Of a stretch of 40,000 nt of DNA, positions 16,255-24,111 are shown one piece after another (the stretch's first letter is position 1; each line of letters begins with the position of its first letter). The notes under the pieces are model-generated. The model worked only from the letters and a program-made list of their open reading frames with translations. It was not told the DNA's origin and made no database searches. A program made the translations under genes and the position numbers. The stretch is from an uncultured Alphaproteobacteria bacterium (lineage in GTDB: Bacteria > Pseudomonadota > Alphaproteobacteria > HIMB59 > GCA-002718135): the NCBI GenBank assembly GCA_902596065.1, contig CACJSL010000007.1, positions 1-40,000 on the forward strand, written 5' to 3'.

Positions 16255-17762
16255 AAGTTTTAGTTTTTTTACAGAGGGAATGGGCATTTCTTTATGGAAT
16301 ACCAATTGTAGAAACTATTAAAAAAAAATACCCAGATACAAAGTTTGCAGGTTATGTTTATAAAATAAAAACCTGGAACAAGATCAAAAAACAATATAAT
16401 TACTTTGACAAACTTTGGTTAGGTTATAAATTTGATGATCAAATATTAGATTTAAAAATCAAAGATGAAATTGAAAAAATTAATATTTCAGATTTAGAAA
16501 AAGAATTAGAGATTGATAGTGTATGGAAAGATATCATTCATGTAGATAGAAATTTAATCTATACACCGGGACAGAAATGGAGATACTCTCTAAAGCAACA
16601 AGTTTCTGATGAAAATAGTTTAAAAATAGTCAAATTAAATTACTTATTTATAAAAAATCAAATCTTTAATGAATTCAAGCCTGACATAGTTATACTTCCA
16701 AATTTTGGATCTATATTTCATAATGTACTTTATTATTATTCAAAAAAAAGAGGAGTTGATTGCTGGATGCCAATAGCTTCGAAAATATCTAACAGAGTAT
16801 TATTAACAAATGATAAAGAATATACTTTATCAAATATTTTTAATAATTACAGTAACTTTTCTCCAAATAAAGAATCATTATTTTTTGCAAAAGAGTATAT
16901 TTTAGAATTCAATAAAAATTTCATAAAACCAATTCACCTTAGAAAGATAAATTTTAAAACTCAAAGTTTATTTAAAAATTTTATGAAAGATTCTTTAAAA
17001 TTACCTATTAGAACTATAAAAAATTATTACAATAATAAAAACCCTCTAAATCCTAAAGTTTATAGAACTCTAGACAACATTAAAACATTATATTTTATTA
17101 AAAATTTTTTTTCTGAATATAATAATTTATATAATTTAAAAAAATATAAGTATGATAATTTGGGTAATATTGCTGATTATATTTTTATGCCCCTTCATGT
17201 TCAGCCAGAAGTTAGCACAAATCTTTGGGCGCCCTTATTTACCAATCAATTTGAATTTATACGTCAAGTAGCTATATGTCTTCCGGGCAATCTTTCACTT
17301 GTTGTGAAAGAGCATCCAATAATGCTGGGGCGAAGATCTTGTAAATATTATGATAAGTTGAGAAAATTACCTAATGTAAAAGTATTGTCACATACTATTG
17401 AAACTAAAGACATAATACCACATAATAAATGTAAAGGAATTGTTGTAATTTCTGGAACTGCAGGATTTGAAGCCGCCATTTTGGGTAAGCCTGTTTTTAT
17501 TTTTTCAAAAACTTTTTACGATCACTTAAATAATGTAATTACTATTAATAATTTTGATGAATTTATTTATAAGATAAAGACTATAGAAAATTTAAAATAT
17601 GATAATAATGAAACAGAAAAGTTGATATCTTTTTTATATGAAAATTCATTTGAACTTTCTTATTCTTTAGCTTATTCAAAAAAAATAGACATAAGCAACA
17701 TTAAAAAAGCCTATTTAAAAAAAATAGATGCAATATATAACAAACTCACTACTAATAATTAA
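16251..17762 (+). CDS. Capsule-synthesis-like glycosyl/phosphoryl transferase (capsule polysaccharide synthesis family)
   Basis: FMPLHVQPEVSTNLWAP, LSLVVKEHPIML, GIVVISGTAGFEAAILGKPVFIF, similar to the KpsS/KpsC-type C-terminal region. Confidence 0.55.
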   Translation: MKVLVFLQREWAFLYGIPIVETIKKKYPDTKFAGYVYKIKTWNKIKKQYNYFDKLWLGYKFDDQILDLKIKDEIEKINISDLEKELEIDSVWKDIIHVDRNLIYTPGQKWRYSLKQQVSDENSLKIVKLNYLFIKNQIFNEFKPDIVILPNFGSIFHNVLYYYSKKRGVDCWMPIASKISNRVLLTNDKEYTLSNIFNNYSNFSPNKESLFFAKEYILEFNKNFIKPIHLRKINFKTQSLFKNFMKDSLKLPIRTIKNYYNNKNPLNPKVYRTLDNIKTLYFIKNFFSEYNNLYNLKKYKYDNLGNIADYIFMPLHVQPEVSTNLWAPLFTNQFEFIRQVAICLPGNLSLVVKEHPIMLGRRSCKYYDKLRKLPNVKVLSHTIETKDIIPHNKCKGIVVISGTAGFEAAILGKPVFIFSKTFYDHLNNVITINNFDEFIYKIKTIENLKYDNNETEKLISFLYENSFELSYSLAYSKKIDISNIKKAYLKKIDAIYNKLTTNN

Positions 17763-21150: not shown

Positions 21151-24111
21151 TTATATTAATTTCCTAATAGTTTTTTGATCACAATCTATTAATACCTTAG
21201 AATAACTAGATATTTCATTAAAGAGGTTTTCACCGCAACCTATAACAGATGGTATGCCGTATTCGGAAGCTCTTATAGCCATATGAGATGCCGCTCCACC
21301 AAATTTTGTAATTAAACCTGCGATATCATAAGAAAATAGCCAGTCATATCCTGGGTCAGCTGTTTCAATTAATATAATTTTTTTTGAAATATCTTTTATT
21401 TTTTTATAATTTTTTATCAAAAGTATTTCACTTTGGATTTTTTTTCTAGTTATAAAATTTGGAGTTATGGAAAATTGTTTAATTTCAAATATATCATTAA
21501 TATTTCTTATCAATGCAGGTGCCTTTATAAGGCTTTCTAAATGATATTTCTTTTTAGAATTATTTAATTTTGTTTTAAAAAAACTAAAATTATTAAAATT
21601 AGTATTTTCAAAATTTAAAAAATCTTCAATTGAATAAAATTGAATGTCCTCTTTAGATAAGTTTAATTTATTAGAAAATATTTTAATAATTTCTAGAATT
21701 TTGTTTACACACTTGGTAAATTCATATTTACCTTTTTCTCTGCCTTTTATAGAATTTATTATAAATTGATACAGTTCTGATTCATCTAATTTAATTTTTT
21801 CATATTTTAGTAAATTAATTATTTTTTTTGAATTTTTTTTCCAAATTTTTTTTGAAATCGATGAAGATGATTTTGAGGAGTTATAGGATAAATTGTCTTT
21901 TTTAAAAAAATTTTCATCAATCATTTGTTTATAATTTTTTGAAGTAATATCATAAGTCGATGGTCTTAAATGACCATATTTATCAATAAAATATTTTTTA
22001 GAGATTTTTTTACTAAGAAATCTATGTAAATCTTCATTAAATTCACTAGAAATAGTACTGATATTTTTTAAAAAATTATTATAGTCAGTTGGTGAAAAAA
22101 TATTTTGTTTTTCAAATGAACTTAATATTTGAAGTGCTATAAAAGCACATCTAGCTTGTATAGAAAAAGGAATAACACCTTTTTTAATACAAAGATCAAC
22201 AATTTGATTTAGTTTAAAAGATAACTCAAAAATACTACTTTTTTTTGAAAAATTTATATTCCCAAGTTCTTTATTTAAAATTAAATAATTATTTGCAATA
22301 TCTTTAAAATTTTTATTAGAATTTGCTATTAAATCTCTAGTCCAATTGGAATATAATTTTATAATTTTATTAGAATTTATTTTGTTAATTTTTAAATTCT
22401 TAGTTAAGTGATTTGACATTCTTTTTTTATCAAAATAATAACAATTCACTACAACATTAAATTCAACTTTATCAAATTGAGCAGGATTTTTATCTAAATA
22501 TTTAATTTCTTGATTAATCAATTTATTTGACAGGGAAGAATCAACTGATTGTAATAAAAAAGAATTAAAGCATCTCCTTATATCTACATATGGTTTTCCT
22601 GCGAGAGAAACTAATAAACGTTTATTAGTCATATCCTTATATCCCATTTGTTTTCTAGCTTCAGCCCAAGAATTGTTAGTAATCAACTTACAATAAAGAG
22701 AGTAATCTAAAGGCTTAGGTTGAGTGCCAATCATTTCTACAGGATTCCAGTCTGTCATATTGGAGTAAAATGTTTTTATGCCTGAAATATTATCCTTATA
22801 ATTAAGTTTATTTGTTAAAAAATTTTTAATTGAATAAATCTCATCATCAAAGTCTAACATTGAATAAAATTTTAACTTTTTATTTATTACTAGAGGCCTA
22901 ACTTGCAGAATAAAAATATTTCCTTTTTTATCAACTGCAAACTCTATATCCAATTTAGAATGTAAAACTTTTTTTTCAATTTCTTTTACAACTTTTAATA
23001 AATCGTACAACCATTTAATTTTTTTTGAAGTAAAATTTTTATATACATAAATAGTTTTAGTATCAGAAGATGTCCCACTAGTTACTGTATCTGTTATTCC
23101 TGATGTATCATCATAGTTTATAATATAATAAGGTGAGCCATTCTCATTTGATATAGTAAATAATACTCCGCTAGATTTAGTATTTTGTAAATATTTTTGA
23201 ATCAAAACTTCATCTTTAATGTTTTGGGAATTTAGTTTGTTATAAGAATTAAAAACTTCATTAATTTTATTTTTTACATTTTCAAAATTATTAGGGTCTA
23301 CATTAAGAAATGATTTATAAGAACCTGCATTTGATTTTTTCCAAGAATCTTCTGATATTGCACTACTTCTAATTACTATTTTTTCATTTTTAAAAGCTGT
23401 AGCTATTTCTTTTATTAAAGATGATTTTTTTTTATGCCATGTAGAATAATCAATTGTTATTTGATTAAGAATATTTGCTTTGTTTATTAAGGATTGTAAT
23501 CGATTTAAAGTTTGAGCTTTTGTGCCAAGGATAAATTTTGCCAATGCATCATAATTTTCAAATAAACTAAAATTTTCATTATCTATAATTTTTTTAACAG
23601 TATTATTTTTAGAACTATAAATATTATTTAGATCAGAAAATTTTATAAATTTCTTTTTTAAAATATTTTTTTTTAATATATTTAAATCTGGTTTCTTAAA
23701 AAAAAAAATTGATTTATCTAGATTAAATTTTTTATCATTAGAAATGATAAAACTAGAGTTAATCAAAAGATTTTTTTTAATTAAATTTGCCCTAAATAAA
23801 ACATTAGAGTTAATTATTATAACATCTTGATCTAAAAAATTTGAAACTAGGGAAAGTAAGTTCAATGAATTATTATTTTCCCAGTCATCATTATAAAAAA
23901 TCTTAAGACCAGGATAGTTTTTTATTATTTTTTCAACATGATATCCGGCAATAAAAATAGTGTCTTGAATATTAATTTTTTTGAGTTCATTAAGTGTCCA
24001 ATCAAGAAGCGAAGCATCTTTGTTAGGTATTTTTACTAAATAAGATGGGTAACTATGTTCTGCTGATAACCGTGTTTGACCCCTTGATGATCCAATAATA
24101 ATTGCTCGCAT
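21151..24111 (-). CDS. Fusion of N-terminal nucleotidyltransferase-like domain with PEP-synthase-like L-glutamine kinase (Cj1418-like)
   Basis: aa 1-~185 NTase-like (IIIGSSRGQTRLSAEHSYPSYLVKI...); then GTKAQTLNRLQ, VIRSSAISEDSWKKSNAGSYKSFLNV (PPDK_N-type ATP binding), YYIINYDDTSGITDTVTSG, FAVDKKGNIFILQVRPL; C-terminal phospho-His domain ITKFGGAASHMAIRASEYGIPSVIGCG. Confidence 0.85.
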   Translation of the reverse strand: MRAIIIGSSRGQTRLSAEHSYPSYLVKIPNKDASLLDWTLNELKKINIQDTIFIAGYHVEKIIKNYPGLKIFYNDDWENNNSLNLLSLVSNFLDQDVIIINSNVLFRANLIKKNLLINSSFIISNDKKFNLDKSIFFFKKPDLNILKKNILKKKFIKFSDLNNIYSSKNNTVKKIIDNENFSLFENYDALAKFILGTKAQTLNRLQSLINKANILNQITIDYSTWHKKKSSLIKEIATAFKNEKIVIRSSAISEDSWKKSNAGSYKSFLNVDPNNFENVKNKINEVFNSYNKLNSQNIKDEVLIQKYLQNTKSSGVLFTISNENGSPYYIINYDDTSGITDTVTSGTSSDTKTIYVYKNFTSKKIKWLYDLLKVVKEIEKKVLHSKLDIEFAVDKKGNIFILQVRPLVINKKLKFYSMLDFDDEIYSIKNFLTNKLNYKDNISGIKTFYSNMTDWNPVEMIGTQPKPLDYSLYCKLITNNSWAEARKQMGYKDMTNKRLLVSLAGKPYVDIRRCFNSFLLQSVDSSLSNKLINQEIKYLDKNPAQFDKVEFNVVVNCYYFDKKRMSNHLTKNLKINKINSNKIIKLYSNWTRDLIANSNKNFKDIANNYLILNKELGNINFSKKSSIFELSFKLNQIVDLCIKKGVIPFSIQARCAFIALQILSSFEKQNIFSPTDYNNFLKNISTISSEFNEDLHRFLSKKISKKYFIDKYGHLRPSTYDITSKNYKQMIDENFFKKDNLSYNSSKSSSSISKKIWKKNSKKIINLLKYEKIKLDESELYQFIINSIKGREKGKYEFTKCVNKILEIIKIFSNKLNLSKEDIQFYSIEDFLNFENTNFNNFSFFKTKLNNSKKKYHLESLIKAPALIRNINDIFEIKQFSITPNFITRKKIQSEILLIKNYKKIKDISKKIILIETADPGYDWLFSYDIAGLITKFGGAASHMAIRASEYGIPSVIGCGENLFNEISSYSKVLIDCDQKTIRKLI

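What the first reader, a model, noticed from the sequence alone, without database searches (positions are those of the whole stretch)
17759..24111. Putative phosphoramidate (MeOPN-type) biosynthetic operon in a marine-type glycan island, with two unexpected extra enzymes
Five consecutive minus-strand genes read 5'->3': PEP-synthase-like L-glutamine kinase, NeuB-like synthase, radical SAM/SPASM enzyme, class I amidotransferase-like hydrolase, NTP transferase. From established knowledge, Campylobacter jejuni makes the CDP-phosphoramidate donor of its capsular O-methyl phosphoramidate with Cj1418 (L-Gln kinase), Cj1416 (CTP:phosphoglutamine cytidylyltransferase) and Cj1417 (gamma-glutamyl-CDP-amidate hydrolase). 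Three genes here match those types by motif (e.g. GTKAQTL..LQ / GGAASHMAIR; YDKTNMVH / YIGLIK / GNWVEID; GICRGHQ / VNSFHNF / WHPER). Inference: the cell decorates a surface glycan with a P-N linked group, and the interleaved NeuB-like and radical SAM genes may be pathway-specific tailoring steps giving a new phosphoramidate-containing sugar.
Basis: partly seen in the sequence, partly recalled or inferred. Interest (0 to 1): 0.9.

Follow-up and report, generated by a model that had tools for sequence, protein, structure and literature searches.

The report
Marine phosphoramidate-donor operon in glycan island
A marine bacterium carries all four kinds of gene that Campylobacter needs to make its rare phosphorus-nitrogen sugar decoration, plus recycling and transfer genes laid out like a sulfation system; this suggests the decoration is widespread and that a sulfotransferase-like enzyme may attach it.

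Summary
The five genes are real and at the stated coordinates. Three form a phosphoramidate-donor triad: glutamine-kinase type (21151-24111), gamma-glutamyl-CDP-amidate-hydrolase type (18556-19200) and phosphoglutamine-cytidylyltransferase type (17759-18556). NeuB and the radical SAM enzyme are not conserved parts of the pathway: none of 95 other kinase loci has them there, and relatives keep NeuB with PseC/PseG and the radical SAM gene with WbqC. The most novel reading is that the 'sulfotransferase' at 25020-26123 transfers the phosphoramidate from 3'-phospho-CDP-amidate, a PAPS look-alike. It occurs in only two of 163 genomes of the order, the two that also hold the long kinase and a matching stand-alone APS-kinase homologue, with no CysD found; in one it abuts that kinase. 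This is inference from sequence; nothing was assayed.

The parts
21151..24111 (-). L-glutamine-kinase-type enzyme (ATP-binding domain + phosphohistidine swivelling domain, His943), with a degenerate N-terminal nucleotidyltransferase-like domain (residues 1 to about 190)
   Evidence: Pfam PPDK_N + PEP-utilizers only; NF004508 768 bits over cut-off 501. R248, D454-W455-N456-P457, G938-G939, S942-H943-M944 and R947 invariant in 25 homologues and against Campylobacterales kinases from operons whose hydrolase passes NF045546.
20269..21129 (-). NeuB-type sialic/pseudaminic-acid-synthase-like enzyme; assigned to the neighbouring nonulosonate-like module, not to the phosphoramidate pathway
   Evidence: NeuB 2e-57; PseI/NeuB models about 184-191 bits, below cut-off; only NeuB hit in the genome; 74% identical copy between an SDR gene (48% to 30465-31406) and a PseG-like gene in G382; between PseC and PseG in L029.
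19203..20195 (-). Radical SAM/SPASM enzyme of unknown substrate; a glycan-island gene, not a phosphoramidate step
   Evidence: Radical_SAM + SPASM; 80% identical copy next to WbqC and carbamoyltransferase genes in G382 on a contig other than the kinase contig; WbqC-radical SAM pairs without kinase in viral contigs L184/L185.
18556..19200 (-). gamma-glutamyl-CDP-amidate-hydrolase-type enzyme (triad Cys105-His193-Glu195)
   Evidence: NF045546 5e-31, 108 bits, below the equivalog cut-off of 250; catalytic triad and N151-S152-x-H154 invariant with Campylobacterales hydrolases over the cut-off.
17759..18556 (-). phosphoglutamine-cytidylyltransferase-type enzyme with intact LAAGxGxRLxPLT...PK signature
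   Evidence: NTP_transf_3; 38-44% identity and 48 invariant positions with cytidylyltransferases in Campylobacterales operons.
7826..8344 (-).
   Evidence: APS_kinase PF01583 1e-37; outside the CysC/CysNC clade (split 99/93) and with kinase-linked homologues; lacks residues conserved in CysC, e.g. E. coli F77 to Tyr, F127 to Tyr, C139 to Leu, F159 to Val; only strong APS-kinase homologue in the genome.
26165..26959 (-). CysQ-type 3'(2'),5'-bisphosphate nucleotidase, proposed to dephosphorylate the 3'-phospho-nucleotide left after transfer
   Evidence: TIGR01331 243 bits over cut-off 228.8; orthologue is directly upstream of kinase-hydrolase-cytidylyltransferase in G382; CysQ inside two Campylobacterales operons, L146 and L148.
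25020..26123 (+). Sulfotransferase-fold enzyme, proposed phosphoramidate transferase using 3'-phospho-CDP-amidate
   Evidence: Sulfotransfer_3 3e-19; model matches PAP-bound sulfotransferases; R138-x7-S146 motif invariant in six relatives; only in G000 and G382 of 163 genomes, immediately upstream of the APS-kinase homologue in G382.
24239..24946 (+). WbqC-family protein; gene adjacent to the radical SAM gene in relatives
   Evidence: PF08889 2e-63; WbqC-radical SAM adjacency in G382, L184 and L185.
26956..31406 (-). Nonulosonate-like module: CTP_transf_3 domain protein (26956-28308), PseG-like (28308-29318), PseC-like (29320-30459), SDR related to UDP-xylose synthase/ArnA (30465-31406); likely partners of NeuB
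   Evidence: PseC 392 bits (cut-off 423.5), PseG 98 bits (cut-off 153.6), PRK11908 194 bits (cut-off 294); shared with NeuB in L029 and G382.

Best explanation
The window encodes a phosphoramidate-donor pathway of the Campylobacter type inside a surface-glycan island. [quoted passage not shown] the cytidylyltransferase (17759-18556) makes CDP-L-glutamine; the hydrolase (18556-19200) releases glutamate and CDP-amidate; the APS-kinase homologue (7826-8344) adds a 3'-phosphate to give 3'-phospho-CDP-amidate, a PAPS look-alike. A sulfotransferase-fold enzyme (25020-26123) would move the phosphoramidate onto a sugar hydroxyl, and CysQ (26165-26959) would remove the 3'-phosphate of the spent nucleotide. 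NeuB belongs with PseC, PseG, an SDR and a CMP-sugar-synthetase-like gene as a nonulosonate-type module, and the radical SAM enzyme pairs with WbqC; both share the island but not the pathway. Shown by sequence: gene families, catalytic residues, conserved order, subfamily placement of the fourth enzyme, co-occurrence. Inferred: all chemistry, the acceptor and the role of the sulfotransferase-like protein (that last role I put at about 0.4; the confidence below is for the donor pathway and the exclusion of NeuB and radical SAM).
For: Kinase, hydrolase and cytidylyltransferase assignments. Exact order kinase-hydrolase-cytidylyltransferase in 57 of 95 loci; APS-kinase homologue in the same run in 33. 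Campylobacterales operons with hydrolases over the NF045546 cut-off include ones that carry the same four enzymes, about 29-43% identical to the window's. The window's fourth enzyme falls outside the CysC clade; locus L098 holds one member of each type, and the residues differ. CysQ lies next to or inside the operon in G382, L146 and L148. The sulfotransferase-like gene occurs only in G000 and G382 of 163 genomes and abuts the APS-kinase homologue in G382; CysD is found in neither and no PF01747 ATP sulfurylase in G000. L029, from a Rhodospirillaceae MAG, holds the quartet, the sulfotransferase-like gene, carbamoyltransferase, WbqC, NeuB and PseC/PseG in one stretch. The four-gene requirement in C. 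jejuni is from PMC3907429; the glutamine kinase step and 3'-phospho-CDP-amidate are from PMC6429109.
Against: The hydrolase is below the NCBI equivalog cut-off (108 vs 250), and NF004508 is named only 'hypothetical protein'. The fourth enzyme lies 10 kb from the triad and on another contig in G382. The genome is 68% complete, so the missing sulfate-activation genes could lie in a gap. No homologue of the roughly 610-aa Campylobacterales protein taken to be the transferase was seen in the window. CysQ and sulfotransferase genes also accompany true PAPS sulfation. Of the four genomes in the order with a stand-alone APS-kinase homologue, two (G398, G330) have no detected kinase.
Confidence: 0.78

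Rival explanations
1. Two independent modules: a phosphoramidate triad plus an ordinary PAPS sulfation set (APS-kinase homologue, CysQ, sulfotransferase) whose ATP sulfurylase lies in the missing part of the genome.
For: CysC + CysQ + sulfotransferase is the normal make-up of sulfation loci. The protein has the sulfotransferase fold. The genome is 68% complete.
Against: The APS-kinase homologue is outside the CysC clade and lacks its conserved residues. No CysD was found in G000 or G382, although 86 of 163 genomes in the order have it. True APS kinases in the order are mostly about 620-660 aa CysNC fusions, not stand-alone. CysQ is directly upstream of the kinase in G382.
Confidence: 0.15
2. 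The triad makes a different CDP-activated group: the kinase phosphorylates another small molecule, and the hydrolase and cytidylyltransferase act on that product.
For: Kinase identity to Campylobacterales enzymes is only about 32-36%, the hydrolase is below the equivalog cut-off, and other loci have partners such as formyltransferase-like and unknown 200-aa genes.
Against: Catalytic and family-specific residues of all three proteins are shared with Campylobacterales enzymes. The hydrolase's best model is the gamma-glutamyl-CDP-amidate hydrolase, and a glutaminase-type hydrolase next to the kinase fits a glutamine-derived intermediate.
Confidence: 0.1
3. One reading: NeuB and the radical SAM enzyme are phosphoramidate-pathway steps that make a new phosphoramidate-bearing sugar.
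For: They sit between kinase and hydrolase with short gaps in the window. The radical SAM gene is found only in two genomes of the order, both of which hold the long kinase.
Against: None of 95 other kinase loci has them between kinase and hydrolase. In G382 they are on another contig beside PseG/PseC and WbqC. The radical SAM family is abundant in sequence databases (1262 hits) and occurs with WbqC in viral contigs without the kinase nearby.
Confidence: 0.06

Closest known systems
Campylobacter jejuni MeOPN donor genes cj1415-cj1418 (PMC3907429; enzymes described in PMC6429109)
   Same: Same four enzyme types with shared catalytic residues; kinase-hydrolase-cytidylyltransferase together, with a CDP-amidate-kinase-type APS-kinase homologue and a surface-glycan setting.
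   Different: Marine alphaproteobacterium; kinase with an extra degenerate nucleotidyltransferase-like domain; NeuB and radical SAM genes inserted; fourth gene 10 kb away; no homologue of the roughly 610-aa putative Campylobacterales transferase; no methyltransferase in the operon; CysQ and a sulfotransferase-fold protein present instead.
PAPS sulfation modules (CysD/CysN/CysC or NodQ, CysQ, sulfotransferase), e.g. Bacteroides finegoldii plasmid locus L177
   Same: Three-part logic: 3'-phosphonucleotide kinase, sulfotransferase-fold transferase, CysQ phosphatase.
   Different: No ATP sulfurylase found; the kinase is outside the CysC clade; donor genes for CDP-amidate are present.
Pseudaminic/legionaminic/sialic acid biosynthesis (PseB-C-H-G-I-F, NeuB)
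   Same: PseC-, PseG-, NeuB- and CMP-transferase-like genes in one island.
   Different: All score below the NCBI cut-offs; no PseB found among the genes tested; the SDR gene resembles UDP-xylose synthase/ArnA, so the sugar may differ.
PEP synthase and rifamycin phosphotransferase
   Same: ATP-binding (PPDK_N) domain and phosphohistidine swivelling domain.
   Different: Far below their cut-offs; no C-terminal PEP/pyruvate-binding domain is detected.

Membership tests
MeOPN-type phosphoramidate-donor pathway | L-glutamine-kinase-type enzyme with phosphohistidine domain | tested here: met
   NF004508 768 bits > 501; catalytic His943 and 107 other positions invariant with Campylobacterales kinases and relatives. 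Substrate not tested.
MeOPN-type phosphoramidate-donor pathway | gamma-glutamyl-CDP-amidate hydrolase | tested here: inconclusive
   NF045546 is the clear best model but 108 bits is below the equivalog cut-off of 250; Cys-His-Glu triad intact.
MeOPN-type phosphoramidate-donor pathway | CTP:phosphoglutamine cytidylyltransferase | tested here: met
   38-44% identity and 48 invariant positions with the Campylobacterales operon enzymes; substrate not tested.
MeOPN-type phosphoramidate-donor pathway | CDP-amidate kinase (APS-kinase homologue distinct from CysC) | tested here: met
   Outside the CysC clade in a PMSF maximum-likelihood tree, residue signature shared with kinase-linked homologues; position within that group weakly resolved.
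MeOPN-type phosphoramidate-donor pathway | Cj1421/Cj1422-type transferase | tested here: not met
   The roughly 610-aa candidates in L145 have no blastp match in the window, and the one scanned has no Pfam hit; a different transferase must act if the pathway is complete.
MeOPN-type phosphoramidate-donor pathway | O-methylation of the phosphoramidate | tested here: inconclusive
   Methyltransferase-domain genes exist at 14245-16254, but none is in the operon; Campylobacterales operons have one next to the kinase. Unmethylated phosphoramidate is reported in other bacteria (PMC3907429).
MeOPN-type phosphoramidate-donor pathway | Phosphoramidate on a surface glycan | not testable with these tools
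   Needs 31P NMR.
APS kinase (CysC) / PAPS sulfation | Member of the CysC clade with ATP sulfurylase partner | tested here: not met
   Clade excluded in the tree; no PF01747 in G000 and no CysD in G000 or G382; genomes incomplete.
Sulfotransferase superfamily (25020-26123) | Sulfotransferase fold and 3'-phosphate-binding Arg-x7-Ser motif | tested here: met
   Sulfotransfer_3 3e-19, Foldseek E 3e-10 to TPST2 from a model of pLDDT 74, R138/S146 invariant. Says nothing about the group transferred.
PEP synthase / rifamycin phosphotransferase | Score over the family cut-off | tested here: not met
   75 vs 598 and 39 vs 999 bits.
Pseudaminic acid synthase PseI / NeuB | Score over the equivalog cut-off | tested here: not met
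   184 vs 340 (PseI) and 191 vs 400 (NeuB) bits; clearly in the NeuB superfamily.

The most novel reading that the evidence does not exclude
A phosphoramidate version of the PAPS system: CDP-amidate is 3'-phosphorylated by a former APS kinase, a sulfotransferase-fold enzyme transfers the P-N group instead of sulfate, and CysQ recycles the nucleotide. This would give the first sulfotransferase-fold phosphoramidate transferase known to me, and a reason why an APS-kinase homologue is part of the pathway.
Probability: 0.42. Interest if true: 0.8.

Novelty: new variant of a known kind. Interest (0 to 1): 0.62.

Why it matters
A 2022 review calls the glutamine kinase 'C. jejuni-specific' (PMC9561416). 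The survey here shows the kinase family, mostly with the same two partner enzymes beside it, across bacteria and archaea, so P-N decorated glycans may be common and largely overlooked. How the phosphoramidate is transferred to sugars appears still open: a 2025 paper lists that decoration chemistry as work to come (PMC12409886). The CysQ, APS-kinase-homologue and sulfotransferase-fold set gives a specific, testable candidate. It also warns that small 'cysC-cysQ-sulfotransferase' sets beside a glutamine kinase may be mislabelled as sulfation.

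Tried and rejected
Kinase as PEP synthase feeding NeuB with PEP: rejected on family scores. NTP transferase as phosphocholine cytidylyltransferase: LicC is the best PDB match (48 bits), but the match to the Campylobacterales operon enzymes is far stronger. 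N-terminal domain of the kinase as a second active cytidylyltransferase: its signature lacks the GxGxRL...PK residues, and so do the other long kinases with this domain that were inspected. Kinase in viral contigs: none. Primary papers on Cj1418/Cj1416: not held, so Campylobacter chemistry is taken from reviews and my own knowledge. Metagenomic relatives of the kinase (61-63% identical) could not be placed in context because metagenome scans were capped. A structure of the conserved 200-aa neighbour family found in other loci gave no significant PDB match. A wider test of transferase type was only suggestive: sulfotransferase-like genes in 6 of 36 loci with the APS-kinase homologue vs 1 of 59 without (p = 0.011, but the search seeds came from such loci), and CDP-glycerol-phosphotransferase-like genes in 4 of 36 vs 21 of 59 (p = 0.009); seed-independent Pfam tallies agree in direction for sulfotransferases (6 of 144 vs at most 3 of 141 genes). 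CysQ showed no such link (p = 0.67). Loci in that survey are not phylogenetically independent.

Full report
Observation. The window is the whole of one contig (C7) of a 1.05-Mb, 68%-complete genome in 61 contigs. Close database matches of the radical SAM protein are labelled Candidatus Pelagibacter, so a marine alphaproteobacterium is likely; its order and genus were not established.

The triad. The 986-aa kinase scores 768 bits against NF004508 (cut-off 501) and far below the cut-offs of PEP synthase and rifamycin phosphotransferase. Only the ATP-binding and phosphohistidine domains are found. The hydrolase's best NCBIfam model is gamma-glutamyl-CDP-amidate hydrolase (5e-31), though below the equivalog cut-off. 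To reach proxies for the characterised enzymes I scanned 251 genomes of the order of a Helicobacteraceae locus (L061): seven have a hydrolase over that cut-off. The operons read kinase-hydrolase-cytidylyltransferase, mostly with the APS-kinase homologue. Against these and two relatives, 108 kinase, 20 hydrolase and 48 cytidylyltransferase positions are invariant, including the catalytic residues.

Distribution. Of 95 kinase loci inspected, 57 have the exact order kinase-hydrolase-cytidylyltransferase, 69 have all three in one run, and 33 have an APS-kinase homologue in the run. So the triad is a widespread cassette, and some databases already name members 'glutamine kinase'. Many of the roughly 1000-aa kinases, the window's included, carry an N-terminal nucleotidyltransferase-like domain that has lost its catalytic signature, while the stand-alone enzyme keeps it.

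The missed fourth enzyme. The ORF at 7826-8344 is a 172-aa APS-kinase homologue and clusters with the kinase-linked neighbours. In a 56-sequence tree all annotated CysC, CysNC and NodQ proteins form a clade (99/93), and the window protein and its G382 orthologue (100/90) lie outside it. Locus L098 holds one member of each type. CysC-conserved residues are replaced across the kinase-linked set: E. coli F77 by His or Tyr, F159 by Val, F127 by Tyr, C139 by Leu. From memory, two phenylalanines stack on the adenine of APS in fungal APS kinase; that these are the same columns is my recollection and was not tested.

Recycling and transfer. CysQ (26165-26959) is over its equivalog cut-off. Its orthologue is directly upstream of kinase-hydrolase-cytidylyltransferase in the same-family genome G382, and CysQ is embedded in two Campylobacterales operons. 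The sulfotransferase-like gene (25020-26123) occurs in 2 of 163 genomes of the order, G000 and G382; in G382 it directly precedes the APS-kinase homologue. These two also hold the long kinase. CysD is present in 86 of 163 genomes but was found in neither of these; most APS kinases in the order are CysNC fusions; G000 has no PF01747 ATP sulfurylase. The predicted structure (mean pLDDT 74) matches PAP-bound sulfotransferases and the R138-x7-S146 motif is invariant among six relatives; from general knowledge that spacing matches the 3'-phosphate-binding motif of sulfotransferases. A protein that looks built to bind a 3'-phosphonucleotide, in genomes whose only strong APS-kinase homologue is of the CDP-amidate type, suggests that the group transferred is phosphoramidate. 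This is inference; genome incompleteness is the main weakness.

NeuB and the radical SAM enzyme. None of 95 other kinase loci has them between kinase and hydrolase. In G382 the kinase run is on contig C6, while contig C15 carries SDR-NeuB (74%)-PseG, a CTP-transferase-domain gene and PseC, then WbqC-radical SAM (80%)-carbamoyltransferase. In L029, a Rhodospirillaceae MAG, the order is radical SAM-PseC-NeuB-PseG, then WbqC-kinase-hydrolase-cytidylyltransferase-APS-kinase homologue, then the sulfotransferase-like and carbamoyltransferase genes. Large viral contigs have WbqC-radical SAM without the kinase nearby. The parsimonious reading is several modules of one surface glycan, shuffled in the window. 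They do co-occur, so the final glycan may carry both a nonulosonate-like sugar and the phosphoramidate.

Limits. No chemistry was tested. The acceptor sugar and O-methylation are unknown. Names for the Campylobacterales-type genomes are withheld by the tool, so 'Campylobacter-type' rests on the curated hydrolase cut-off and order-level sampling around a named Helicobacteraceae locus. The fourth enzyme's placement inside the non-CysC group is weakly resolved. The literature search covered open-licence papers only.

Noticed in passing
L029 (Rhodospirillaceae MAG, PBIN01000015.1) 1-24036: Holds homologues of some 17 window genes in one stretch, including the sulfotransferase-like (54%) and carbamoyltransferase (56%) genes, so a large part of the island is shared between distant alphaproteobacteria.
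   Followed up: partly
window 26956-31406 and 37433-38719: PseC- and PseG-like genes with an SDR closest to UDP-xylose synthase/ArnA and a UDP-glucose-dehydrogenase-type gene, but no clear PseB: the NeuB product might be an unusual acid built from a UDP-4-keto-pentose rather than pseudaminic acid.
   Followed up: no
L033, L035, L036, L046, L052, L059, L071, L072, L079, L085, L089, L093, L099: A roughly 200-aa all-helical family (the member scanned has no Pfam hit, and the model has no PDB fold match) recurs next to the phosphoramidate genes, usually paired with a short formyltransferase-like gene (11 of 36 loci with the APS-kinase homologue, 5 of 59 without).
   Followed up: partly
L034, L037, L042-L045, L047, L055, L065, L070, L088 and others: Kinase loci lacking the APS-kinase homologue more often carry a CDP-glycerol-glycerophosphotransferase-like gene (21 of 59 vs 4 of 36), hinting that CDP-amidate may be used directly there.
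   Followed up: partly
L060, L064, and proteins such as P0035: Some kinases carry a different N-terminal domain (PF01467-type cytidylyltransferase with an HYGH motif), a gene-fusion link between kinase and nucleotidyl transfer.
   Followed up: no
G398 C7:35365-35805 and G330 C5:35152-35589 (loci L175, L176): Stand-alone APS-kinase homologues near sulfotransferase-like genes, without CysD and without a detected glutamine kinase, in same-family genomes: either missing contigs or another 3'-phosphonucleotide-activated group.
   Followed up: partly
L184, L185 (IMG/VR contigs of 60 and 155 kb): Radical SAM relatives (51-52% identical) directly after a WbqC gene in sugar-biosynthesis-like gene clusters of contigs classed as viral.
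   Followed up: partly
window 38729-39868: Next to the glycan genes and a UDP-glucose-dehydrogenase-type gene lies a match over cut-off to CoA-acylating methylmalonate-semialdehyde dehydrogenase (TIGR01722), which looks out of place in a sugar island; it may run on past the contig end.
   Followed up: no
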